NCBI RefSeq assembly: GCF_007988805.1
Contig: NZ_BJUV01000004.1
Coordinates: 62,001-126,000 of the forward strand
Length of the DNA stretch: 64,000 bases
Source: Frigoribacterium faeni
GTDB lineage: Bacteria; Actinomycetota; Actinomycetes; Actinomycetales; Microbacteriaceae
Reading direction: 5' to 3'
Positions 8 through 37,436 of the stretch are shown piece after piece. The translations under genes were made by a program, and so were the position numbers. How positions within the stretch are numbered: position 1 is the first letter of the stretch; every line of letters begins with the position of its first letter. Below the pieces are notes generated by a model. The model was not told the DNA's origin, did not search any database, and worked only from the letters and a program-made list of their open reading frames with translations.

Positions 8-478
8 ATGACCGACACCCCTCCTTCGCAGCCGAACGATCCCCGCGCCGGAGGCCAGCAGCCCTCCGGGCAGCAGGGCTACGGCCAGCCCGGCCACGGA
101 CAGCCCGGGTACGGACAGCAGCCCTACGGCGGCCAGCAGCAGGTCCCGCCGATGCGACCCGAGGACGAGAAGCTCTGGGCGACGCTCATCCACCTGGGCG
201 GCATCCTCTTCTGGTTCGTCCCGTCGCTGGTCGGCTACCTCGTGCTGAAGGACCGCGGCCCGTTCATCCGCGAGCACACCCGCGTGGCCCTGAACTTCCA
301 GATCACGATGGCGATCGTCCTCGTGGCCTCGGGCCTGCTGTCGGTCATCGTCATCGGCGCCATCACCGGCTTCGCCGCCGGCGTCGTGGTGGTCATCTTC
401 TCGATCATCGCCGCGGTGGCGGCGAACAGGGGCGAGTACTACAAGTACCCCCTCAGCTTCGAGTTCATCAAGGCGTAG
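8..478 (+). CDS. DUF4870 membrane protein, 3' end rebuilt by prophage
   Basis: A 156-residue membrane protein of the DUF4870 type. Residues 1-45 are a Gln/Gly/Pro-rich low-complexity tail with repeated GYGQP units. The DUF4870 region follows, with an aromatic first segment (about 58-75) and two strongly hydrophobic helices (about 98-118 and 120-140), ending in KYPLSFEFIK. Function is unknown. The last 43 bases before the final codon are repeated at 37394-37436, so the gene is the chromosomal integration site. The present last codon is GCG (Ala) with stop TAG, both phage-derived; the displaced copy continues AAC TGA, so the native protein should end in Asn. The coding change is a single residue. 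No terminator follows the gene here. Confidence 0.9.
   Translation: MTDTPPSQPNDPRAGGQQPSGQQGYGQPGHGQPGYGQQPYGGQQQVPPMRPEDEKLWATLIHLGGILFWFVPSLVGYLVLKDRGPFIREHTRVALNFQITMAIVLVASGLLSVIVIGAITGFAAGVVVVIFSIIAAVAANRGEYYKYPLSFEFIKA
430..472 (+). repeat. attL core (43-bp repeat copy 1)
   Basis: Identical to 37394-37436. It is flanked by G on the left here and C at the other copy, and by GCGTAG versus AACTGA on the right. Inside it, GTACT-ACA-AGTAC (436-448) is an inverted repeat of the size expected for the core-type sites of a tyrosine recombinase. The left integrase stop codon lies only 11 bp beyond the core. Confidence 0.92.
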
Positions 479-483
479 CCCGC

Positions 484-1605
484 CTACTTACTGGCTTCCG
501 CGGCTGCCGCGGACTCGCCGGTCCGCAAGGGGTCCGCAAGAGGCTCGAGCGCGGCCCGCATGAGTCCCGCGGCAGCCGTTCTCGTTCGGTCCTCAGCGGT
601 CGGCCAGAGGTGCGCATAGGTATTGAGCGTGACCGTTGCTTGAGCATGTCCGAGAGCACGCTGCACGGTCACGACGTCACAGCCGGAGGCAATGAGGCCC
701 GAAGCAAAGTAGTGCCGCAGATCGTGCGGGCTGATCCCTGTGACCCCTGCCGCTGCAGCTGCAGCTGCCCTACCAAACCAGTACCGGAGGCTCGCCGGCG
801 TCGGGGGTGCACCGGGGAACAGCCAGCCGTCATCGCCGAACGTGCCTAACCGCTCGAGGTGCTGCGCGATCAGCGTCACCAGCTCGTCGGGAATCGAGAC
901 GACGCGCTCGGACCCCGACTTCGGCGGCGACACTTCAGTTACTCCCCCGTTGTTCTGAGCCTGCCTCTGCACATGCAAGGTCCGTCGCAGAAAGTCGATG
1001 TCGCCGACCTGAAGACCAGCCGCTTCGCCAATGCGAAGACCCGCGAACGCGCATACAGCGATGAACGGCCTGTAAGCCTCCTCTACGGCATCTAGCAGCC
1101 AGCCCACCTGGTCGCTCGTCGGAATGCTCATACGGTGCTCAGCGCGGCGCTGACGTGGCAGAACGACGCCCGCAGACGGATCCGCCGCAAGCACCTGGTC
1201 ACGGACTGCTCCCCGCAACACCCCACGGATGAACCGCATCCGAGTGGAGATCGTTGACGGCTGCATCGTCAGCGTCATCGCCTTAACCCACGACTCGACG
1301 TGGCTCCGGCGCACGCGGTCGAGCGGCACGTCGCGGAACGTGCACCCCTTGACGGCATTGCGGGCCGTGCGCAAGGTTGCAGGTGCCCACACCTGCCGAG
1401 AAGACCAGTCTGCGAAGAAGGACTCGAGCGTCACCTTGCCCGACTGCGGGTCAACGTAGGTCCCCGTCAGCAGCGAAGCGGTCACCTTGTCGAGGTGCTG
1501 TTGTGCGTCCACTTTCCGGTCGAAGTGCCGCGAGTGCTCCTTGCCCTGCTCATCTCGGTAGCGGGCTCGCCATTTGCCGCTAGGGCGCTTCTGGATGCTT
1601 GCCAT
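484..1605 (-). CDS. Tyrosine integrase (left end)
   Basis: A 373-residue tyrosine recombinase that would join phage attP to the DUF4870 attB site. An N-terminal arm-binding segment (about 1-55, starting MASIQKRPSGKW) is followed by a SAM-like core-binding domain (about 58-150) and the catalytic domain. Catalytic residues are visible: R191 (AGLRIGE), K229 (PPKSG), H294 and R297 (HDLRH), H320 (LGHAQ) and Y330 (NTYAHL). The MASIQ start is chosen because the 49 residues upstream are Arg/Ser-rich shadow of the overlapping repressor gene. The gene overlaps the 3' end of the repressor gene by 26 nt, so the two are probably co-transcribed. Its 3' end abuts attL. A second integrase lies at the other end of the prophage. 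Confidence 0.93.
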   Translation of the reverse strand: MASIQKRPSGKWRARYRDEQGKEHSRHFDRKVDAQQHLDKVTASLLTGTYVDPQSGKVTLESFFADWSSRQVWAPATLRTARNAVKGCTFRDVPLDRVRRSHVESWVKAMTLTMQPSTISTRMRFIRGVLRGAVRDQVLAADPSAGVVLPRQRRAEHRMSIPTSDQVGWLLDAVEEAYRPFIAVCAFAGLRIGEAAGLQVGDIDFLRRTLHVQRQAQNNGGVTEVSPPKSGSERVVSIPDELVTLIAQHLERLGTFGDDGWLFPGAPPTPASLRYWFGRAAAAAAAGVTGISPHDLRHYFASGLIASGCDVVTVQRALGHAQATVTLNTYAHLWPTAEDRTRTAAAGLMRAALEPLADPLRTGESAAAAEASK

Positions 1606-2077
1606 CTTCAGCCTTGTTGTCATCCCAGAGGGCGTTCTCGGCCTCATTCTGCAGCGCCCTGCGCTTACGGACGTGCTCAACGGTGGCTTCGACCGTGAGG
1701 TCGAGCCAGCCACCCATAAGCTCCCGGACGCGATCCGATTCGCCGTCCCCAAGGATGGCGCTGATTTCCTCTTGAGTATCGAGAAAAAGCTCGATCGCTT
1801 CCTCGAGAGATTGATGAGCGTCCTTCATCCGACGCGATGCGCTCACGAGGGCCGTGTCGCCGTCGGCAAGGGTCAGTGGCCATGCCGTGCCGATTATCTC
1901 TTTGATGTCTTCAGACTCTGCCAGGCGGAGTGGCCGCTTACCCTGCTCGACGGTATGCACCGTGGTCTGAGACCACTTCCACCCACGAGAGGACATTGCT
2001 TCCGCGAGTTCTTTCTGGGTCATTTGACCTCGTAGTCGCGCGAGGTTGCGTCCGATCTGAGTGTCACTGATGGCCAT
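1580..2077 (-). CDS. XRE-family phage repressor (likely immunity repressor)
   Basis: A 165-residue DNA-binding protein with an N-terminal HTH of the XRE type (about 3-60: IGRNLARLRG, then MTQKELAEAM and TVHTVEQGKRPL). A helical, acidic C-terminal half probably mediates oligomerisation. Position next to integrase and opposite the excisionase-like gene is typical of a CI-like immunity repressor. ATG 2077 is chosen because it sits 7 nt after a TATGCT hexamer that has TTGGAA 17 nt upstream, giving a leaderless mRNA. Longer in-frame starts (up to 2170) would cross that promoter. There is no recognisable LexA-like peptidase domain, so induction may not go through autocleavage. Confidence 0.85.
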   Translation of the reverse strand: MAISDTQIGRNLARLRGQMTQKELAEAMSSRGWKWSQTTVHTVEQGKRPLRLAESEDIKEIIGTAWPLTLADGDTALVSASRRMKDAHQSLEEAIELFLDTQEEISAILGDGESDRVRELMGGWLDLTVEATVEHVRKRRALQNEAENALWDDNKAEDGKHPEAP

Positions 2078-8528: not shown

Positions 8529-8750
8529 CTACTGCTTTCCGGACAATGCCGGCTCCTCTGACTGCGCCGGAACCGTTGCTTCGGCAAGGAAGTTGAACAA
8601 CTCGTCAGCCAGCGCTTCCTCGCTGCCATACCCTTCCCCGAGCCGATGCACCACTCCCATCAGCAGGTAATGCCAGCCGACCTCGTCGGTTGATTCCTTA
8701 CCCTGTGCCTCGATTAACGCGGCCAGCAGATCATACTTTGTGAATGCCAT
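8529..8750 (-). CDS. Small acidic accessory protein
   Basis: A 73-residue soluble, acidic protein (MAFTKYDLLAALIEAQ). No family recognised. The ribosome site AAGGGGAG lies just upstream of the ATG and close to the stop of the 8765-9358 gene, so the pair forms a two-gene operon read leftwards from one leaderless promoter. A small cytosolic partner of a membrane-anchored protein is a typical layout for exclusion or toxin-control pairs, but nothing in the sequence proves it. Confidence 0.6.
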   Translation of the reverse strand: MAFTKYDLLAALIEAQGKESTDEVGWHYLLMGVVHRLGEGYGSEEALADELFNFLAEATVPAQSEEPALSGKQ

Positions 8751-8764
8751 GACGGCTCCCCTTG

Positions 8765-9358
8765 CTATCGGTCGAATTGTTTCTCGTATTCGGTGAGTGC
8801 CTCACGGCAGAAGTCCGCGCCAGTGCTGAGATCGTTCGAGAGCACCTCATCCGACTGCTCCTCATTCAGATACCCAGCCACGACCGTCCGCATTTTTTGC
8901 AACACATCAACGTGCAGCGACTGTATGGAATCACCAGACCAGAGCAGATCGATCGTGGCCTGGCTCCCATAGAAGATGTCGAGGCCATTTCTAAGATCCT
9001 TCCGGACCTGCGGGCTTGGAATTCGTTCGAGCAGGCCACCAATCAGACGGTTGAGACTTGTTGATGACAACGGATAAGTGGCCTGGTGGCCGTTCACGAT
9101 AGCCAAGAAGTTGTCGAGGATGTCAAAGACCTCTTGCGCAATACGCGAACCGCTTGACCGCTGACGTTCGGCACGCGCAATCTCTTGTTGTCGTCGCCGC
9201 TCAGCGTCCTCTTCCGCTGCAACGAGGGCTCTTCTGGCTGCCTCGTCTTTTTTGGCGAAGTGGCGAGCGATTGCAGCCCTTAGCGGCTCGACGATAACAC
9301 CAGCGACGAACGTGGCCACTGGCAGCAGCGCAAGCACCCAGGGCAGCCAATCGTTCAT
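8765..9358 (-). CDS. Membrane-anchored coiled-coil protein (moron)
   Basis: A 197-residue protein with an N-terminal transmembrane helix (about 5-25, LPWVLALLPVATFVAGVIV), a long charged coiled-coil (about 33-70) and a helical cytosolic domain. No family recognised. Its start codon lies 6 nt after TATGCT (9370-9365, minus strand), fitting a leaderless transcript. It is first in an operon with the 8529-8750 gene, opposite in direction to lytic transcription, so expression in the lysogen is likely. Possible exclusion function is inference. Confidence 0.65.
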   Translation of the reverse strand: MNDWLPWVLALLPVATFVAGVIVEPLRAAIARHFAKKDEAARRALVAAEEDAERRRQQEIARAERQRSSGSRIAQEVFDILDNFLAIVNGHQATYPLSSTSLNRLIGGLLERIPSPQVRKDLRNGLDIFYGSQATIDLLWSGDSIQSLHVDVLQKMRTVVAGYLNEEQSDEVLSNDLSTGADFCREALTEYEKQFDR

Positions 9359-9364
9359 TCACTG

Positions 9365-9370
9365 AGCATA
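9365..9370 (-). promoter_or_regulatory. Leaderless -10 of the 9358-to-8529 operon
   Basis: TATGCT on the minus strand, then CAGTGA, then the ATG at 9358. The hexamer is the same as that of the repressor gene. Confidence 0.55.
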
Positions 9371-9500
9371 GGGGTCGCCGCGGACGAGCTGCACCATCGT
9401 CCGGAGGCTGTGGGTTTGCAAGCGCCCACCGGCTCATCCTCGTGCTGCCTTCCATCCATCCGGCAGGCTGCATTACCTGCCGTCGAGGGGCACAGGGCAG

Positions 9501-10013
9501 CTAGCTCAGTGGCGAGCCAGCCTTCATGCGTTTGACGAGAGCCTGGCCGCTCGATGTCAACGAATAGGTCACGAGTTGAGCAACCGGCATCCCACCGATG
9601 AACATGCCCCCACTGTCGGCTCTTGCCGTGAGATGACCATCGCGTAGCAAGTAGTAAAGGTCTAGCTCGCGGCCCGTATTGAGTTGGACCGAGCTTGAGT
9701 TGGTCTGAGCGAACTGTTCTAAAAGCCGACGCTCGAACTCCCCGTAGCGACCATGAAGCAATGCCAAGTTTGCCTTGTACTGCTGGATCGATTTGCGGGG
9801 AATCTTGCCTTCCAAGTCGTACATGGTGTGGCACACAGAGCACAGGGTTATCAAGTTCTCGAACTCGTGAGTTCGAACCTCCACCCACGGAACGATGTGG
9901 GCTATCTCGAGCGCGGACGTCCCCTTACATGTCGGAATCGCGCAGCGATAGCCGGACTCCTCCTTGACCGCTCGCTGCAACGCCAATGGGATGGACGGCC
10001 TTCTCTCAGCCAT
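9501..10013 (-). CDS. HNH nuclease-domain accessory protein
   Basis: A 170-residue protein with an N-terminal HNH endonuclease fold: Cys pair in RCAIPTCKG (about 23-31), EIAHIVPW (about 36-43) supplying the first His, NLITLC-VCH (about 53-62) supplying the Asn and second Cys pair. The C-terminal half (about 95-165) looks like a small winged-helix domain. It is separate from the packaging HNH gene at 12685. GGGAG 6 nt before the ATG is the ribosome site. Possible roles are restriction-like defence or a homing-type nuclease; the minus-strand position favours an accessory function. Confidence 0.75.
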   Translation of the reverse strand: MAERRPSIPLALQRAVKEESGYRCAIPTCKGTSALEIAHIVPWVEVRTHEFENLITLCSVCHTMYDLEGKIPRKSIQQYKANLALLHGRYGEFERRLLEQFAQTNSSSVQLNTGRELDLYYLLRDGHLTARADSGGMFIGGMPVAQLVTYSLTSSGQALVKRMKAGSPLS

Positions 10014-10024
10014 TGGAGTCTCCC

Positions 10025-10246
10025 ATGTACTCTTTCCGTTTCCTTGGAATCAGGTTCCATCGAGTGGGCGATGGCTGGGTATATGCGGACGACGGCGGTT
10101 GGATACCAGGACGTCGCCGTGCACTTCTCCCGGCGATCCTGGCCGCTCTTGCGTACCGAAGCAACCCCCTCGAGAGGCAGATGATGTCAAGCGCGTCCCT
10201 CGATGGCCGAGATACTGATAGCCAGCGCCCTGCGCAGGGCTTCTGA
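10025..10246 (+). CDS. Small hypothetical protein divergent from HNH gene
   Basis: A 73-residue frame starting MYSFRFLGIRFHRVGDGWVY. Its ATG lies 11 nt from the HNH start on the other strand. GGAG 6 nt upstream is a fair ribosome site, and the shared near-palindrome TGGAGTCTCCCA supplies sites in both directions. The first 50 residues have balanced composition; the last 25 look random. Could be a real small protein or a coincidental frame. Confidence 0.35.
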   Translation: MYSFRFLGIRFHRVGDGWVYADDGGWIPGRRRALLPAILAALAYRSNPLERQMMSSASLDGRDTDSQRPAQGF

Positions 10247-10430
10247 AACCCAGCAGGACGCACTTGCTGATGAGGGGCACGGCACGGGTAGCCGTCATTG
10301 AGAGCGCTGCATCAAGAACCCCGAACGCAGCCGTCACGCCCACGACACGGGCGCTCAGCTTGGTCTGATGGCTCGAGGCAATGAGCGTTTTCACATAACG
10401 GAGACGTCGTCGGTTCGCCGAACCTGCCGC

Positions 10431-10808
10431 CTAGTACCGGTCAGGGGCCAGATCGTTTGCTACGTCCTGCGCCGCATCCCGTAGCTCGAGGCTCTGCGGG
10501 AACAACCTCGACCGGTTCGCGCGCCCCTGGTCGAGAAGTAGGGCAAGAGCCTTGTGGATAGCCTCCCGTTCCTCATGCGCTCGCCAGGCTTCAACGCGGA
10601 CAGCAACTAGAAAGATTGCTCCGGCCAGCGCCACCGCGACGAGAACGATGCCCGGGATGATCGTATTGCTCGGCCACGCAAGGGCTACGGCCGACAACAT
10701 GAACGCCGCTAGGCCAACAAAGAAGGCTGCGGTAACCGAGTCCCCGAGCCAGCCGTACATCCGAAACATAATTCGCCACGGTTTCTTCGGGGCGTTGGCA
10801 CTAGTCAT
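10431..10808 (-). CDS. Small two-helix membrane protein
   Basis: A 125-residue protein with two adjacent transmembrane helices (about 25-45 and 49-70) and a cytosolic C-terminal helix rich in Glu/Arg (EAWRAHEEREAIHKALALLL). ATG 10808 is preferred over 10817 because CAATAT at 10821-10816 (minus) is 7 nt away, fitting a leaderless start. No family recognised. Another opposite-strand accessory gene likely expressed in the lysogen. Confidence 0.6.
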   Translation of the reverse strand: MTSANAPKKPWRIMFRMYGWLGDSVTAAFFVGLAAFMLSAVALAWPSNTIIPGIVLVAVALAGAIFLVAVRVEAWRAHEEREAIHKALALLLDQGRANRSRLFPQSLELRDAAQDVANDLAPDRY

Positions 10809-11024
10809 ACCTCTCATATTGGTGCAACTTGCCCGCCCGCATCACCACACACTTCCCCGCGACCGAGCGACATACACTCTTACTGCGCTGAGAGCCCGGG
10901 GAACCTCGTCATCATCGCTACCTGCTCTGGTCACGGCGCGGCGAGGACCCCAAAGTTGAGACCGAGCGCTCTTCCGAAAGCGATGCTGTGTCATGCTGAG
11001 TCCTCATTAACATGGGGTGGGGCA

Positions 11025-11924
11025 ATGGCAGGCAAGGCACGCACGGTCTTCTTCTACAGCGCGGTAGAAATCGATAAGGACGGGAGAGCACACCAGTTCG
11101 GGAAGGACTGGTGGGGTAACTTCCTCGCACACGTTGCGTCGCTGGACGAACCAGACAGGCAGACCTACTACCACCGTCGTCACTTCACAGGCGAAGTGGC
11201 CGAAACCATCTCGCCGGCCGTCAGATACCTCCGGGTGGGCAAGCAACGCCCTGGGGCTGACTGGCCAGACATCGAGTTTGACGAGGGCGACGAGGGAGCC
11301 AGGATCGCCGCGATCGTCGAACCTCTTTACATCGTCCCAGTGACGGGCACAGCGTATGTCGCGATCGTACGTACCTCAGGCGCGGCCACCTGGGAAGCAC
11401 TCACTGACTGGATCTCAACCGTGGGCAAGTTCATCGAGGGCGATACCGCATTCGCTCTCGAGCCGTACACCAACCGTGACCAGCTCGACAGGTTGGCGAG
11501 CGCAGTCGGCGCATCCAAGGTTTATCTCAAGGTTGATCCAGAGGGGCTAGACCGCCTGCCGGGAAAGTCCGAACTCGGCCAGGCCGTCGCGCGCGCTGCA
11601 GGCGCTGGTGCAGGCGCAGTCTCCGTCGAGATCACCGTGAGCTTTGGCCGAAGTCGCGCCGAGGAGGCAGGAGCCGAAAGCCTCATCGAGGGAGTCCGCG
11701 AGGTCATCTCGTCGGGGAGCTACACGCACGCGAAAGCGACGCTGCTCCAACCGTCTGACGACGGGGCCGGCGTATCAAAAGATCCGATTGATTTCGTGAT
11801 GGACCGAGTCACTTTCCGAGAAGCAGTCGGAGACTCCGAGGACGAAGTTCTCACTCCGGATGACGTTATCGGCGCAATGTCCGACGCCATCACTAGGTTC
11901 AGGGAACGACTTCCGAAGGGGTAA
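11025..11924 (+). CDS. RexA-like phage-exclusion sensor (candidate)
   Basis: A 299-residue soluble protein, start ATG 11025 after GGGGTGGGG. From memory of lambda RexA (279 residues) the order of elements matches: a beta-rich N-terminus opening with an aromatic strand (RTVFFYSAVEID), a central block around EGDTAFALEPYTNRDQL, a GASKVYLKVDP strand, a helix-rich segment with repeated Val/Ile/Phe strands (VSVEITVSFGRSR) and a C-terminal helix pair after LTPDDVIGAMSDAITRFRER. Sequence identity is low, so this is a fold-level guess. The next gene, 5 nt away, encodes a four-helix membrane protein like RexB, in the same order as lambda rexA-rexB. Kiwa KwaB is the main alternative. Confidence 0.5.
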   Translation: MAGKARTVFFYSAVEIDKDGRAHQFGKDWWGNFLAHVASLDEPDRQTYYHRRHFTGEVAETISPAVRYLRVGKQRPGADWPDIEFDEGDEGARIAAIVEPLYIVPVTGTAYVAIVRTSGAATWEALTDWISTVGKFIEGDTAFALEPYTNRDQLDRLASAVGASKVYLKVDPEGLDRLPGKSELGQAVARAAGAGAGAVSVEITVSFGRSRAEEAGAESLIEGVREVISSGSYTHAKATLLQPSDDGAGVSKDPIDFVMDRVTFREAVGDSEDEVLTPDDVIGAMSDAITRFRERLPKG

Positions 11925-11929
11925 CACAG

Positions 11930-12484
11930 ATGCGCAGCCAGCTGAACGTGGTCGATCACCCCATCCTCGTGGACGGCGCGCTCTTCGTCCTGGTCCTGGC
12001 CCACGCCGTCTTCACATGGCTGACACCAGTCCCCAACATATGGGAACCGATGATTCAGTATGATGCCGGGGTCCAGTCAGCGCTCTACCTGGCGTTCTTC
12101 GGTGCCGCTGCTTTAGTGAGCAGCTTCGCTGGAGTCGTCATCATTTTCGGACTCACACCGCAGAGCATCCGGTGGCAACGCTTCCGAGTTGAGGCGGGCG
12201 AAACCCTTGCGCGAAACTGGACTTCGACATCAGCCTCCGGATTTGTCGGTGCAGGACTGGCGCTGGCAGCCGGCGTGGCAGCACTAAGCGGAGGCACATG
12301 GCTCGCGCCTTGGCTCTTCGAATTGGCCATCGGTCTCGTGGCTCACAGCTCCGTTCGTTTAATCCTCCTGATGCGCAAGCTCATCGACGTGATTCGTGGT
12401 GACGACGTGGAGGCGGTACGCAAGGCCGATGATCGCCCCGCGTCGGACGCGCCTTGGAACCGGAATGCGAGCGCGAACGACTGA
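11930..12484 (+). CDS. RexB-like four-helix membrane protein (candidate)
   Basis: A 184-residue membrane protein with four predicted helices: about 13-32, 50-75, 100-121 and 123-146, then a basic cytosolic tail (LLMRKLIDVIRGDDVEAVRK). Lambda RexB is a four-helix inner-membrane channel of 144 residues encoded directly after rexA; size class, topology and order agree. It starts 5 nt after the upstream stop, so the two genes are one unit. If the parallel holds, the soluble partner senses infection and this protein depolarises the membrane. Topology is seen; function is inferred. The Kiwa membrane protein KwaA also has four helices but normally precedes its partner. Confidence 0.5.
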   Translation: MRSQLNVVDHPILVDGALFVLVLAHAVFTWLTPVPNIWEPMIQYDAGVQSALYLAFFGAAALVSSFAGVVIIFGLTPQSIRWQRFRVEAGETLARNWTSTSASGFVGAGLALAAGVAALSGGTWLAPWLFELAIGLVAHSSVRLILLMRKLIDVIRGDDVEAVRKADDRPASDAPWNRNASAND

Positions 12485-12684
12485 GGCGGCAAGTGAACCC
12501 CGGACGAGGGATCCACGACAACGCGCACCCAGTTGCGCCACAGTGCAGCGCCGCCGCGGACGCACCGTCGTGGCCCCCCGTCGACAGGTTGACCGAGACT
12601 CCCTAACAACCCGGATGGGCACACACCCGGACTCCCCGGCTAACCGGATACCCCCGTAACACACCGATGCCGGGAGGGCAGCCC

Positions 12685-12996
12685 GTGGGGCAGCAATGGT
12701 CAGGATCCACCCGCAAGGAACGCCTACCCGACGACTGGCAAGAGCGACGAGCGGCCACCCGCGACCGTGCAGGCGGACGATGCCAAGCCACCATGCGCGA
12801 CGGCACACGCTGCGTCGAAGCCGGCACTGACTGCGACCACATCGTGCACGGCGACAACCACGCCCTCTCGAACCTGCAATGGCTGTGTCGCTGGCACCAC
12901 GACAAGAAGACCGCACGCGAAGCACTCGAAGCACGACGGTTCATGCCACGACCATCAGCACGCAAGCCACAAGAGAAACACTTCGGCCTTCGATAG
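12685..12996 (+). CDS. Phage HNH endonuclease (packaging-linked)
   Basis: A 103-residue HNH nuclease of the kind encoded just before terminase genes in many HK97-like phages, where it supports terminase cleavage. Motifs: Cys pair in RCQATMRDGTRC, DHIVHG with the first HNH His, a central Asn in HALSNLQWLC and WHH at the end. GTG 12685 is chosen because GGGAGG lies at 12672-12677; an in-frame ATG at 12667 lacks a ribosome site. Its location 1 kb before terminase fits the family. Confidence 0.85.
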   Translation: MGQQWSGSTRKERLPDDWQERRAATRDRAGGRCQATMRDGTRCVEAGTDCDHIVHGDNHALSNLQWLCRWHHDKKTAREALEARRFMPRPSARKPQEKHFGLR

Positions 12997-13928: not shown

Positions 13929-14002
13929 ACGGTTTAAGCCGCCTGATTAGAGGCATCCGGGAAGTTTCGGCGTCGGTGCCTTGCTCACTTCCGGAGGTCA
14001 TG

Positions 14003-14485
14003 ATGCCTGGTCGTGGACCCGCACCGAAGGCCGCGAACAAGCGAGCCCGACGCAACGCCGAGCCCGTCACGATGCGGATCCTGCCAGCGATCATCGCCGA
14101 GCAGCCCGAGCTGCCGACCCGATACAAGGCGAAGGACGACGAGGACGGCACCTGGCGCGACGAGGTCGACTGGCCGATGGTCACCGTGCGCTGGTGGGCG
14201 ATGTGGCGGGACTCTCCGCTCGCCGCCGCGTTCACGTTCAACGACTGGTCCTTCCTCATGGACACAGCACTCCTACACGCCGAGTTCTGGGAGGGCAACG
14301 TCAAGCTCGCTCCCGAGCTCCGGCTGCGCGAAGCGAAGTTCGGCGCAACCCCCGAGGACCGTGCCCGCCTGCGGATCACGTTCGCGCAGGCCGAGGAAGC
14401 CGAGACGAAGACCGCCACCCGCCGCTCGAGCTCGCGCGATCGGTTCGGCGGCGTTGCTCTGCCGCAGGAAGCGACGGGAGACTGA
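14003..14485 (+). CDS. terS: Terminase small subunit
   Basis: A 160-residue basic protein starting MPGRGPAPKAANKRARRNAE, typical of actinophage small terminase subunits that recognise the packaging site and load the large subunit. GGAGG at 13993-13997 precedes two in-frame ATGs (14000 and 14003); the second has better spacing. The stop overlaps the start of the large-subunit gene (TGATG). Identity rests on the N-terminal signature and on position. Confidence 0.82.
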   Translation: MPGRGPAPKAANKRARRNAEPVTMRILPAIIAEQPELPTRYKAKDDEDGTWRDEVDWPMVTVRWWAMWRDSPLAAAFTFNDWSFLMDTALLHAEFWEGNVKLAPELRLREAKFGATPEDRARLRITFAQAEEAETKTATRRSSSRDRFGGVALPQEATGD

Positions 14486-16134
14486 TGCCCTGGCGACCGC
14501 TCGACGGCGAGACGTTCCCCACGCTCGGCTACCACGTCGCCGACCAGATGGCCGAGTACCTGGAATACGTCGTCTCGCGCGAACAACTCGAGTTCCTGGT
14601 GCGTCTGTACGAGATCGACCCGGCGACCGACCGTCGTGTGAAGGCCCGCGCCGTGATCCAGCGCCCCCGAGGGTGGGGCAAGTCCCCGCTCCTCGCGTCG
14701 ATCGGGATCAGCGAAGCACTGTTCGAGGTCGTCCCCGACGGCTGGGATTCCGATGGGCAGCCCGTCGCGCGCCCCTGGGCCGACTTCAAGAGCATCATCA
14801 ACGTCCCGATCACCGCGACCTCCGACGACCAGGTGCAGAACACGTGGGCCCCGATGCTCGAGATGGCGCGCACAGACGCGCTCGTCAACGAGTTCGACGT
14901 CGACCCGATGGACACTTTCATTGGGATCCCCGGCGGCAAGATCGAGCCCCGCACGTCGTCGGGACGCTCGATCAAGGGCCTCCCGGGCCAGGTCGCGGCG
15001 ATCATGGACCAGACCGAGGAGTGGGTCCGCGGCAACGGCGGCATCCGCCTCGCCCAGAACATCCGCGACAACTCGACGAAGGCGTCCGGCGTCGTGATCG
15101 AGTCGCCGAACGCGTTCACCCCGGGTGAGAACTCGGTCGCTGAGGCATCGGCGCGGGACTGGGACCTGATCAAGTCGAAGAAGTACGTCGACCTCAGCAA
15201 GGCGCGGCAGATCCACTACGACCACCGCGAAGCGCCCGCCGACATCGATCCGACGGACTCCGCGTCGCTCGAGTACGGCTTGCGGTACGCGTACGGTGAC
15301 AGCTCGGATCACCCCGACGGCTGCGTCATCCACGAGCCACCGTGCGAGCCCGGTTGGGCCCCGATCGAGCGGCAGATGCTGGCGTTCCTCGACACGTCCA
15401 ACGATCCCCAGTCGCTCCGCGCGAACTTCCTCAACCAGATCACCCACGCGACGAACTCGTTCGTCTCGCAGCCCGAACTTCGCGCGATTCAGAACCTCGA
15501 CAAGGTCATCACGAAGACCGAACCGGTCACGCTCGGCTTCGACGGCTCCGAAGGGCGCAAGCCCGGCCGCGGCACCGCCGACTCGACGGTCCTGGTCGGC
15601 TACTCCGTCACCCAGAAGCACCTCTTCAAGATCGGCATTTGGGAACAGCCCGACGGGCCCAAGGGCGAGGGCTGGCGACCGCCTGTCCTCGATGTCGAGG
15701 CGGTCGTCCGGCAGGCGTTCAAGGACTACAACGTTGTCGGGTTCTACGCGGACCCGTCCGCGGGCTGGGCGGGCCACGTGAAGACGTGGGAGGCCGAGTA
15801 CGGGAAGCGACTCAAGGTCCGGATGTCCCGCGACGAACCGATCCGGTGGCGGCAGAAGGACCTAGCCCGCACGACGGGCACCTTCGACCAGCTCGAGTCG
15901 GCCATCAGCGCCGGAGACATCTCCTACGACGGCTCGCCTGAGCTCACCTCCCACTTCCTCAACGCGCGTCGCGACCCGCGCCGGTCCGGCTACGTGCTGA
16001 AGAAGCCAGACGAGGACCAGGACGGCTCGAAGATCGACGCGACCTGGGGCGCGATGTTCGCCTACGCGGCCGGCATCGACGCCCTCGGCGCGAAGCTCAC
16101 AAAGAAGAAGACGGGCGCGCGGCGCATCTACTGA
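14485..16134 (+). CDS. terL: Terminase large subunit
   Basis: A 549-residue packaging motor. The ATPase has a deviant Walker A PRGWGKSP (61-68), typical of phage terminases, and a Walker B AIMDQTEE (172-179). The C-terminal RNase H-like nuclease starts near LGFDGSEG and includes FYADPSAGW, both carrying likely metal-binding Asp residues. Start overlaps the small-subunit stop. It cuts concatemers and drives DNA into the portal. Length is normal for the family. Confidence 0.93.
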   Translation: MPWRPLDGETFPTLGYHVADQMAEYLEYVVSREQLEFLVRLYEIDPATDRRVKARAVIQRPRGWGKSPLLASIGISEALFEVVPDGWDSDGQPVARPWADFKSIINVPITATSDDQVQNTWAPMLEMARTDALVNEFDVDPMDTFIGIPGGKIEPRTSSGRSIKGLPGQVAAIMDQTEEWVRGNGGIRLAQNIRDNSTKASGVVIESPNAFTPGENSVAEASARDWDLIKSKKYVDLSKARQIHYDHREAPADIDPTDSASLEYGLRYAYGDSSDHPDGCVIHEPPCEPGWAPIERQMLAFLDTSNDPQSLRANFLNQITHATNSFVSQPELRAIQNLDKVITKTEPVTLGFDGSEGRKPGRGTADSTVLVGYSVTQKHLFKIGIWEQPDGPKGEGWRPPVLDVEAVVRQAFKDYNVVGFYADPSAGWAGHVKTWEAEYGKRLKVRMSRDEPIRWRQKDLARTTGTFDQLESAISAGDISYDGSPELTSHFLNARRDPRRSGYVLKKPDEDQDGSKIDATWGAMFAYAAGIDALGAKLTKKKTGARRIY

Positions 16135-33254: not shown

Positions 33255-33398
33255 ATGTCTTCCCTTGGTACCGGTGACAGAGGCCTTGACGACAAGACCC
33301 AGGAACTGCTGAACAAGCAGGCCGAGATCCTCGCGATGTCCTACCCGCACGCTGCCGTTCAGGACATCCGACGCGACATGAAGGAGAGCAACTCATGA
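33255..33398 (+). CDS. Small helical protein upstream of holin
   Basis: A 47-residue frame (MSSLGTGDRGLDDKTQELLN) with CAGGGG upstream and an ATGA overlap with the holin start. It is mostly one amphipathic helix (KQAEILAMSYPHAAVQDIRR). The overlap suggests translational coupling to the holin. Could be an antiholin-like or regulatory peptide, unproven. Confidence 0.55.
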   Translation: MSSLGTGDRGLDDKTQELLNKQAEILAMSYPHAAVQDIRRDMKESNS

Positions 33399-33703
33399 CA
33401 CACGTTGACACCATCCGCGTACAGGAAATCTGGTTCAAGACACAGCGGGCCCTGCGGACAGGCGCACAGGTCCTCGTCTCGGGTGCGCTTCTGCTCGCCG
33501 GCGTATCCGCCGTGGCTCCCGCTGTTCTCGAAGCCGTGCAGGATGTGCTGCCAGGACCGGCCGTCGTCTGGTTGACCGGCTCTATTGCGACACTTGCCGC
33601 CGTCAGTACGGCCCTGGCCCGTGTCATGGCTATCCCTGCCGTCAACCAGTGGCTGACAAAGGTCGGCCTGGGGTCAGTGCCCCGCTCCAGCGTCGAAAGC
33701 TGA
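33395..33703 (+). CDS. Holin
   Basis: A 102-residue protein with an amphipathic N-terminal segment and two transmembrane helices (about 24-46 and 57-80), the topology of class II holins. It would permeabilise the membrane to let the endolysin reach the wall. Starts at ATGA overlapping the preceding stop. It is the last gene of the late region; a very strong terminator follows. Confidence 0.75.
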   Translation: MTHVDTIRVQEIWFKTQRALRTGAQVLVSGALLLAGVSAVAPAVLEAVQDVLPGPAVVWLTGSIATLAAVSTALARVMAIPAVNQWLTKVGLGSVPRSSVES

Positions 33704-35651: not shown

Positions 35652-35885
35652 GTCCTGACGATACATGAGTTCGTGTCTGATATGTCAAGCGCGCCGGATT
35701 GTGACGAGGGCGCTAGATAGTCTCAGAGATGGCGACAGTCGGCCAGGACCATCTCCTCAGAAAGGCTGGCGCGCGTAACCTCAATACTCTGCAGAGGGCA
35801 GATGTGGTGACGCACAGATCAGACTTGACAGATTCGGCGTCTTCATCTCGTCGACTGAAGTAACAAAGCACCTGTGCAAGGCCTC

Positions 35886-37190
35886 ATGAACCAGCCTGCT
35901 GCAATGAGAAGAACGAGCAGAGCAACAGTTCGACGTGTACCTAAAGACGAAACCCAGCCGCTGCTGTATTGGCAGGCGTCTATCGAGACAGACCCAGATC
36001 GGTATGGCAAACGGCGTCGCCGAGTCGTCCGTTCTAAAGACCCCGACGAATGCCAACGAAAGCTGTACGCCGCCCTCGCAGAGGAAGCCCGCAAAGTACG
36101 CCGCCCAGTTCAGCCGCTTCTTCCTCCGATGCCAGCTCTCCACACGAGCGGCAGCACGGGCGAGTGGGTCCAATACTGGTACGAGGCCATCGCAAAAATG
36201 GAAGTTGCGCCAAAAACCGCTGCGACCTACAAGAGCATGATTCAAGGGCAGATTCTCCCAACGCTAGGTGACGTCCCTCTCATCGAGCTCAGTGCAGCTG
36301 ACGTTAGGTCTCTTAGCGCCGCCGTCCGCGACAAAGGCCTGTCAGGAGCAACGGCACTGCAGGCGCATCGCGTCCTCTCGGCTTCACTCACCCAGGCATA
36401 CCGCGAGGGCTACGTGCACCGAAACGTTGCACGGCTGACCAAGCCACCCAAGAAAGACGCGAATCGACTTGCAACGTTGACCGTCTACGACGCCCAACAA
36501 ATTCTGAAAGAGGCAATCAGGGAACGGCTCGGTTCACGGTGGGCCGCAGCACTCCTGACCGGCGCGCGCCAGGGAGAGCTCCTCGGTCTCGAGCTTGACC
36601 GAATTAGCGACACACTCGACCTCTCCTGGCAACTACAGCGCCTCACCTGGGTGCACGGCTGCAAGTCATTTTGCGGCTGGCAACGCGGGGCGGAATGCCC
36701 CGAACGGTTCGTAGATGCACCTGCCGGTCATGAGCGTCGCGAACTCGCAGGTGGACTATGGCTCACCCGCCCGAAGTCCGCTGCCGGGTGGCGCGTCATC
36801 CCCCTTGTAGAACCACTTCGAACTCTGATCGACGCGAGGATTGAGGCTGCTCAACAGGAGCACAACCCCCACGGCCTTCTGTGGACGATGGACACCGGCC
36901 GTCGGCGACGCGACACCCAGGGACGACCTATCGATCCAGGGATAGACAGCAAGAACTGGCACCGACTTCTCGACCAGGTTGGTGTCCCGCACGTGCGCCT
37001 GCACGACGCTCGTCATGCCGCGATCGACCTGCTCTACGAAGCTGGGGCACCCGAAATAGTGATCAAGGACATCGTCGGGCACGCAAGCATCGACATGTCT
37101 CGCCGGTATCGAGGAAGACGCTCGATGACTCCCATGCAAGACGCGCTCAAGGCCATGGCCCAGATCCTCGAGTCACGGCACGGTGCATAG
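35886..37190 (+). CDS. Second tyrosine integrase (right end)
   Basis: A 434-residue tyrosine recombinase only distantly similar to the left one. N-terminal AP2-like arm-binding domain (about 15-70), core-binding domain (about 90-190), catalytic domain with R228 (LTGARQGE), K297 (RPKSAAG), H373, R376 and H377 (HDARH), H399 (VGHAS) and Y408 (SRRYRG). A Cys-containing insert (C259, C263, C271) precedes the catalytic Lys. ATG 35886 has AAGG upstream; the GTG at 35874 is an alternative. It points to attR, with a 200-nt non-coding arm region between. Either this or the left integrase made the present junctions. Confidence 0.92.
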   Translation: MNQPAAMRRTSRATVRRVPKDETQPLLYWQASIETDPDRYGKRRRRVVRSKDPDECQRKLYAALAEEARKVRRPVQPLLPPMPALHTSGSTGEWVQYWYEAIAKMEVAPKTAATYKSMIQGQILPTLGDVPLIELSAADVRSLSAAVRDKGLSGATALQAHRVLSASLTQAYREGYVHRNVARLTKPPKKDANRLATLTVYDAQQILKEAIRERLGSRWAAALLTGARQGELLGLELDRISDTLDLSWQLQRLTWVHGCKSFCGWQRGAECPERFVDAPAGHERRELAGGLWLTRPKSAAGWRVIPLVEPLRTLIDARIEAAQQEHNPHGLLWTMDTGRRRRDTQGRPIDPGIDSKNWHRLLDQVGVPHVRLHDARHAAIDLLYEAGAPEIVIKDIVGHASIDMSRRYRGRRSMTPMQDALKAMAQILESRHGA

Positions 37191-37393: not shown

Positions 37394-37436
37394 GGGCGAG
37401 TACTACAAGTACCCCCTCAGCTTCGAGTTCATCAAG
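37394..37436 (+). repeat. attR core (43-bp repeat copy 2)
   Basis: Identical to 430-472. It is followed by AAC TGA, the native last codon and stop of the DUF4870 gene. Confidence 0.92.

What the first reader, a model, noticed from the sequence alone, without database searches (positions are those of the whole stretch)
11025..12484. Two-gene RexAB-like exclusion module in an actinobacterial prophage
A 299-residue soluble protein is followed 5 nt later by a four-helix membrane protein of 184 residues. Order, sizes and prophage setting match lambda rexA-rexB, and blocks of the first protein line up by eye with RexA (compared from memory). Identity is low, so it would be a new distant branch or a similarly built new system.
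Basis: inference. Interest (0 to 1): 0.8.

Follow-up and report, generated by a model that had tools for sequence, protein, structure and literature searches.

The report
RexAB-type phage-exclusion gene pair
A virus lying dormant in the chromosome of an actinobacterium carries two linked genes that look like a distant version of phage lambda's RexAB alarm, thought to make an infected cell's membrane leak so that a second virus cannot multiply; related pairs also sit among ordinary bacterial defence genes.

Summary
Observation confirmed: a 299-aa soluble protein (A, 11025-11924) and, 5 nt later, a 184-aa protein with four predicted membrane helices (B, 11930-12484), inside a prophage bounded by a perfect 43-bp repeat. 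The RexAB reading is supported. The best full-length relative is Gordonia phage Sidious gp41/gp40, deposited as RexA/RexB family. Lambda-type RexA ranks first in a profile comparison against 108 other reading frames. A low-confidence AlphaFold model of A (pLDDT 52) has lambda RexA (8TWQ) as top PDB match; most other full-span rows are kinetochore proteins of the kind already reported as structural relatives of RexA. I found 13 distinct A loci in Actinobacteria or their phages; 12 have a B-type gene directly downstream. Five are in phages or prophage-like elements; six lie near restriction or other defence genes. Pfam, NCBIfam and PADLOC models do not detect the window pair. B shows no significant sequence similarity to RexB or to the CarolAnn/Sbash partners; only topology matches. 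Exclusion itself is untested. Likely mechanism (inferred): A, a DNA-binding sensor, responds to infection and activates B, which damages the membrane and aborts infection. A new member, in a separate branch, of a known kind.

The parts
11025..11924 (+). gene A: RexA-like soluble protein, 299 aa (proposed infection sensor)
   Evidence: relatives; lambda RexA match
11930..12484 (+). gene B: 184-aa protein with four predicted membrane helices (proposed effector)
   Evidence: relatives
11916..11921 (+). likely ribosome-binding site of B (AAGGGG) inside the last codons of A
   Evidence: read by eye
430..472 (.). left copy of the 43-bp att-like repeat bounding the prophage
37394..37436 (.). right copy of the 43-bp att-like repeat
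484..1752 (-). tyrosine integrase of the prophage
   Evidence: phrog_1 E 4.8e-66; PF00589
1580..2170 (-). likely CI-type repressor (helix-turn-helix by eye); overlaps the mechanical integrase ORF, so the true integrase start is probably downstream of the TTG given
   Evidence: ORF; assignment by eye only
13981..16134 (+). terminase large subunit downstream of the pair (mechanical ORF; its N-terminal part is probably not coding)
   Evidence: phrog_9 E 1.7e-36, residues 175-706

Best explanation
The pair is a RexAB-type abortive-infection (exclusion) module carried by a prophage. A is a cytoplasmic RexA-fold protein, expected to dimerise and to bind DNA without sequence preference. Superinfection (phage DNA intermediates or a phage protein) switches A on; A then activates B, a four-helix membrane protein with a basic cytoplasmic loop between helices 2 and 3. 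Active B leaks or depolarises the membrane, growth stops and the infecting phage is not produced. Shown here: the two genes, their linkage, B's predicted topology, A's faint sequence and fold match to RexA, the prophage, and the defence-gene surroundings of several relatives. Inferred from characterised RexAB systems: DNA binding, dimerisation, activation of B by A, membrane damage and exclusion.
For: Sidious gp41/gp40 are full-length relatives annotated RexA/RexB family next to the immunity repressor. Lambda, Klebsiella and Hafnia RexA take ranks 1-3 against 108 other reading frames for the window clade (34.2, 29.7, 24.7; background mean 14.4, max 23.8) and for the whole family. Lambda RexA is the top PDB match of the A model by VIA-align (Z 8.6, 143 aligned) and by Foldseek (E 0.057). 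12 of 13 distinct A loci have a B-type gene next to them. A and B distances correlate (r 0.80 over 11 pairs, 0 of 20,000 permutations as high). Prophage bounds and genes. Defence genes near relatives.
Against: The A model is poor (pLDDT 52.2); Z 8.6 is only slightly above the 7-8 that the tool calls typical for a best match without a clear relative, and the Foldseek E-value is not significant. The distant clade on its own gives no RexA signal, and the Salmonella RexA relative scores inside the background (19.4-19.7). No similarity of A to CarolAnn, Sbash, Sejanus or Butters proteins, and none significant of B to RexB or to their partners. Curated RexA/RexB models do not match the window proteins. 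The pair is not next to the repressor. The A-B distance correlation may partly reflect shared host ancestry. No functional data.
Confidence: 0.7

Rival explanations
1. Butters-like division of labour: A itself is the antiviral effector and B holds it at the membrane or restrains it until infection.
For: Same gene order and topology as Butters gp30/gp31; that system is reported to work this way (passages of PMC7542560, and PMC12894663).
Against: No sequence link to Butters gp30 or gp31 was found; a passage of PMC12894663 states that three systems (RexABpp, CarolAnn, Sbash) resemble lambda Rex in using the membrane protein as effector.
Confidence: 0.1
2. A convergent two-gene defence system: a soluble sensor plus a four-helix membrane effector built like RexAB (as in Kiwa, from memory) but not related to it.
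For: B has no detectable sequence similarity to RexB; RexA similarity of A is faint and rests on a poor model.
Against: Two kinds of comparison (sequence profile, structure) put lambda RexA first; no PADLOC model matches A or B at E up to 10.
Confidence: 0.1
3. The pair mainly tunes this prophage's own lysis-lysogeny switch, as proposed for lambda RexA, and exclusion is a by-product.
For: Lambda RexA biases the bistable switch (abstract of PMC11077077); Sidious carries its pair beside the repressor.
Against: In the window the pair is about 8.9 kb from the likely repressor, on the other strand; several relatives lie outside prophages near defence genes.
Confidence: 0.08

Closest known systems
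Gordonia phage Sidious gp41/gp40 (MK967384), deposited as RexA/RexB family abortive infection proteins
   Same: Full-length relatives of both genes, same order; A 36%, B 29% over the BLASTP match
   Different: Genes overlap (-32 nt); beside the immunity repressor. No functional paper found for it
Phage lambda RexA/RexB (J02459; RexA structure 8TWQ)
   Same: Soluble gene then four-helix gene; top PDB match and top profile match of A
   Different: Below BLAST level; PF15969 and PF15968 do not match the window proteins though they match lambda's; B shorter in lambda (144 aa); lambda pair is next to cI
Gordonia phage CarolAnn gp44/gp43 and Mycobacterium phage Sbash gp30/gp31
   Same: Two-gene prophage defence with a four-helix partner in Actinobacteria (passages of PMC6426606 and PMC6426596); Sbash pair also away from the repressor
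   Different: A is 370 and 372 aa; no significant sequence similarity for A or B
Mycobacterium phage Butters gp30/gp31
   Same: Two-gene order and four-helix partner
   Different: A is 403 aa; no sequence similarity found
Pseudomonas putida RexABpp (PP_5643/PP_5644)
   Same: RexA recognised by profile and structure only; four-helix partner without detectable RexB similarity (passages of PMC12894663)
   Different: Not compared directly here: its sequence was not fetched

Membership tests
RexAB-type exclusion systems (broad class) | Soluble partner with the RexA fold | tested here: met
   Provisional: top PDB match 8twq by VIA-align (Z 8.6) and Foldseek (E 0.057) on a pLDDT-52 model; profile rank 1. 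None is decisive alone
RexAB-type exclusion systems (broad class) | Adjacent downstream gene for a membrane protein with four helices | tested here: met
   Four hydrophobic stretches in the window B; 5 nt gap; 12 of 13 distinct loci have a B-type gene next
RexAB-type exclusion systems (broad class) | Encoded by a temperate phage or prophage | tested here: met
   Window. Not general in the branch: several relatives lie outside prophages
RexAB-type exclusion systems (broad class) | Excludes superinfecting phages; both genes needed | not testable with these tools
   needs plaque assays
RexAB-type exclusion systems (broad class) | A dimerises and binds DNA non-specifically | not testable with these tools
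   needs protein; reported for lambda, Sbash, CarolAnn and Toast proteins (passages of PMC11077077)
Lambda-type Rex (Pfam PF15969/PF15968), narrow family | Match to the curated RexA and RexB models | tested here: not met
   No match for the window proteins; the models match lambda, but not CarolAnn or Butters proteins either
Lambda-type Rex, narrow family | Next to and transcribed with the immunity repressor | tested here: not met
   Likely repressor at 1580-2170 on the other strand, assigned by eye. Also not so in Sbash, Butters and Rubeelu (passage)
CarolAnn/Sbash subfamily | Sequence similarity of A and B to gp44/gp43 | tested here: not met
   A. B: best score 19.2-20.3, below the top unrelated membrane frames at 21.2-22.4
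Kiwa (KwaAB) | Match to KwaA/KwaB models; membrane gene first | tested here: not met
   No PADLOC family for A or B at E up to 10; here the soluble gene is first. That PADLOC holds Kiwa models, and the Kiwa gene order, are recalled

The most novel reading that the evidence does not exclude
RexAB is not a lambda oddity but a general innate-immunity module: this pair belongs to an unrecognised actinobacterial branch, missed by the family models tried here, that moves between prophages, plasmids and chromosomal defence neighbourhoods (beside type I restriction, HmaABC or NsnA-like genes) and works with a B effector whose sequence has diverged beyond recognition from RexB.
Probability: 0.5. Interest if true: 0.65.

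Novelty: new member of a known kind. Interest (0 to 1): 0.5.

Why it matters
A 2026 paper counts only five described RexAB-like systems (passage of PMC12894663). This branch adds 13 distinct loci in Actinobacteria or their phages. The window pair matches no curated model in Pfam, NCBIfam or PADLOC, and among 12 A members only one touches PADLOC's RexA model, at E 0.062. Several members lie near chromosomal or plasmid defence genes, which favours phage defence, rather than prophage housekeeping, as the selected function. It offers concrete pairs (window, Amnibacterium, Sidious) for testing whether a RexA-like sensor drives a four-helix effector of unrelated-looking sequence.

Tried and rejected
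Family searches of the window A and B: NCBIfam and PADLOC none at E up to 10; Pfam none for A and one sub-cut-off match for B (RSN1_TM, E 0.045); PHROGs one weak match for A (phrog_10865, unknown function, E 0.0021) and none for B. For the 12 A members, Pfam DUF6731 matches 4 at E up to 1 (best 5.6e-5; the one member shown in detail has 16.7 bits against a cut-off of 27) and PADLOC's RexA model matches 1 at E 0.062. DUF6731 was found in 0 of 296 genomes of the phylum and in no paper of the library; I left it as a weak lead.

Two marginal genome matches (G072, E 1.5e-4; G091, E 5.8e-4) were dropped as chance: they are partial, fall among other longer reading frames, and no B-like gene was seen beside them. 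G280 was counted with G211 (the same locus in two genomes of one genus), and the two Pseudonocardia plasmids as one (only one of them was looked at).

Scans of viral contigs with A8, Sidious gp41 and the G506 protein found no relative; A7 could not be used. A sequence search of the PDB with profile A5 gave only matches at E 0.6 or worse, RexA not among them, although RexA is in that file. BFVD gave no match at E up to 0.001 for A or B. The PDB look with B's model gave generic helical proteins, so B's fold is not assigned. The promoter and terminator scan of 10400-12750 found none of either. A Kiwa reading was considered and rejected; a paper search pairing Kiwa gene names with RexA was swamped by unrelated text.

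Full report
What is there. The two genes are as described: A at 11025-11924 (299 aa) and B at 11930-12484 (184 aa), same strand, five nt apart. The start of A at 11025, rather than the longer mechanical frame from 10956, is backed by relatives that begin at the same place. A likely ribosome-binding site of B lies inside the last codons of A (by eye). B has four hydrophobic stretches. Its TM2-TM3 loop has 4 basic and 2 acidic residues, its tail 7 and 8, while the two outer loops have no basic residue; this suggests that both ends and the middle loop face the cytoplasm, the topology described for Sbash gp31 (passages of PMC6426596).

Setting. A perfect 43-bp direct repeat at 430-472 and 37394-37436 bounds about 37 kb that holds a tyrosine integrase, a primase/helicase, a terminase, a portal and a major head protein. 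IMG/VR holds the region as part of a viral contig of 33,378 bases. The pair lies between the early genes and the terminase. A helix-turn-helix gene at 1580-2170 on the other strand is the likely repressor (by eye), about 8.9 kb away, so the pair is not in a lambda-like immunity operon. Sbash, Butters and Rubeelu also have their rex genes away from the repressor (passages of PMC11077077).

Relatives. In 50,697 phage records A matches only Sidious (two records of it), 36% identity over 99% of the length, E 1e-38; the next gene, gp40, is 29% identical to B over the BLASTP match; the record names the two RexA and RexB family, beside the immunity repressor. B itself finds nothing in the phage collection by tblastn at E up to 1. 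Whole-genome searches gave matches at E up to 0.001 in 5 of 199 relatives (two dismissed as chance), 6 of 396 genomes of the order, 4 of 394 of the class and 1 of 396 of the phylum, the window's own genome counted each time; as only a limited number of candidates per genome was scored, these are lower bounds. The locus found in Amnibacterium kyonggiense is the same as that of G111. One more viral contig (L018) and a Pseudonocardia plasmid locus (A 26% over 83% of the length, E 1e-5) were added. Counting duplicates once, 13 distinct A loci are known: window, Amnibacterium, Sidious, L018, G002, G506, G211/G280, G309, G183, G824, G686, G740, Pseudonocardia.

The pair. Twelve of the 13 have a B-type gene next, 3' on the same strand. 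Six B proteins (window, Amnibacterium, Sidious, L018, G002, G686) show four hydrophobic peaks; the others show three to five, depending on threshold. In 11 measured pairs the spacing is -44 to +54 nt. The Pseudonocardia B is 41% identical to the window B over 123 residues. The most distant B is only 15% identical to the window's in the alignment, so there membership rests on position and topology. In G309 only short frames remain downstream, one of which looks by eye like part of a B gene. A and B distances correlate over 11 pairs, r 0.80, with 0 of 20,000 permutations as high; shared host ancestry may contribute. In B the best-kept positions include R86 and W97 in the middle loop (10 of 11 each) and R143 in helix 4 (11 of 11). 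In Sbash gp31, two changes in the central cytoplasmic loop made defence fail (passage of PMC6426596); residue-by-residue equivalence is not claimed.

Is A a RexA? Sequence profiles: the window clade (seven A sequences) against lambda RexA scores 34.2, Klebsiella 29.7 and Hafnia 24.7, ranks 1 to 3 above a background of 108 other reading frames from the loci and the window (mean 14.4, sd 2.8, max 23.8); the whole family of 12 gives 27.4, 28.5 and 26.5, again ranks 1 to 3 (max 24.2). The background frames were picked mechanically, some may not be real genes, and Butters gp30 is among them. Against: the Salmonella RexA relative scores 19.4-19.7, within the background, and the distant clade of five alone shows no RexA signal, though the two clades match each other at E 7.9e-22. 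With reversed lambda-type targets the scores are 14.0-17.4; the highest of the 16 reversed controls is 20.5. hhalign's own probability for the lambda match is low, 8.5-22%.

Structure: the model of A, built on three rows, is poor (mean pLDDT 52.2, pTM 0.50). Of 998 PDB chains aligned, the best is lambda RexA 8twq_B (Z 8.6, rmsd 4.2, 143 aligned, model 6-299). The other listed rows that span the whole model are seven kinetochore entries (8ow1, 8ovw, 6qld, 6eqt, 6c0w, 7qoo, 7xhn; Z 4.3-6.6). PMC11077077 names the yeast kinetochore proteins IML3 and CHL4 as structural relatives of RexA (passage); that CENP-N, the protein of some of these entries, is the CHL4 counterpart is recalled. The tool notes that best Z values of 7-8 are common without true relatives, so Z 8.6 is only modestly above noise; what tells is which protein came first. 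Foldseek also ranks 8twq first, at E 0.057. These two structural looks share one model and one prefilter and are not independent of each other.

A shows no signal to CarolAnn, Sbash, Sejanus or Butters proteins; but lambda RexA shows none to CarolAnn-type proteins either in the same test, so that test cannot separate relatives from non-relatives at this distance.

Is B a RexB? By topology yes, by sequence not shown. The best score is to the CarolAnn/Sbash/Sejanus partners, 19.2 for all B and 20.3 for the window clade (0 and 1 of 100 column-shuffled controls reach it), but other multi-helix frames (n 24) reach 21.2 and 22.4; lambda RexB and Butters gp31 are at background. The model of B (pLDDT 63.3) gives generic helical matches. 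Weakly in favour, one metagenomic virus, Siphoviridae sp. ctylc9, supplies the best viral fold match of A (E 0.0084) and a non-significant one of B (rank 23, E 2.4).

Surroundings of relatives. Phage or prophage-like: window, Sidious, the viral contig L018, Amnibacterium (integrase and repressor-like gene by eye) and G506 (integrase and terminase by eye). Near defence genes: G211, 0.2 kb downstream of hsdR in a row with hsdM and, by eye, hsdS; G183, 0.14 kb from a convergent hsdR, with hsdM further on and a GmrSD-type gene 6.8 kb on the other side; G740, directly downstream of HmaABC; G686, 2 kb from an NsnA-like gene; G002, two genes from a gene with a match to a TIR-type effector model, E 1.3e-10; Pseudonocardia plasmid, within 3 kb of a restriction endonuclease and an N-6 methylase gene. 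G824 has an HsdS-like gene about 8 kb away and is counted as unclear, as is G309. I picked the neighbours to test by eye and computed no chance expectation.

How it likely works. In characterised RexAB systems A is a dimeric non-specific DNA binder, and B a membrane protein that A switches on, leading to membrane damage, growth arrest and aborted infection (passages of PMC11077077, PMC6426606, PMC6426596 and PMC12894663). Everything beyond gene structure, linkage and faint fold match is inference here. The trigger is unknown; in CarolAnn and Sbash defence depends on one or two non-essential genes of the attacking phage (passages). [quoted passage not shown]

Novelty. The pair is a member of a known kind, in a branch separate by sequence from the CarolAnn/Sbash and Butters branches and outside the curated lambda families. 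Searches of the paper library showed me no paper on this branch, on Sidious rex, or on RexAB pairs in actinobacterial defence islands; I saw most of those papers only as listings, and the library lacks most subscription journals. PMC11077077 already notes orphan RexA homologues outside prophages (passage). Papers: of PMC11077077 I saw the outline with abstract, passages and section 18; of PMC6426606, PMC6426596, PMC7542560 and PMC12894663 passages only.

Noticed in passing
430-472 and 37394-37436: Perfect 43-bp direct repeat next to the integrase gene, probably attL/attR; the left copy lies in the 3' end of the ORF 8-478.
   Followed up: partly
35874-37190: A second tyrosine integrase (PF00589, 38 bits) inside the right end of the same repeat-bounded element; perhaps a nested or composite element.
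   Followed up: no
8529-10817: Row of minus-strand genes just upstream of the pair, including an HNH protein (9501-10013, PF01844 E 4.1e-10; weak PADLOC match DpdF, E 1.8e-5) and a small membrane protein (10431-10817); possible further accessory genes.
   Followed up: partly
33395-33703: Small membrane protein 59% identical over 100 residues to one just upstream of the rex-like pair in the same-genus genome G002 (L036:8688-8993); suggests the G002 pair sits beside prophage-derived sequence.
   Followed up: partly
L044:3025-4396 (Pseudonocardia plasmid pBCI1-2): A/B pair on a large mobilizable plasmid near restriction genes; the annotated A lacks the N-terminal part that the window protein has.
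   Followed up: partly
BFVD A0A8S5S8L2 and A0A8S5S8H0 (Siphoviridae sp. ctylc9): One virus yields both the best viral fold match of A and a weak one of B; it may carry another member of the branch.
   Followed up: no
A family against Pfam PF20505 (DUF6731): Four of 12 A members touch DUF6731 at E up to 1 (best 5.6e-5); that family of unknown function may be related to RexA.
   Followed up: partly
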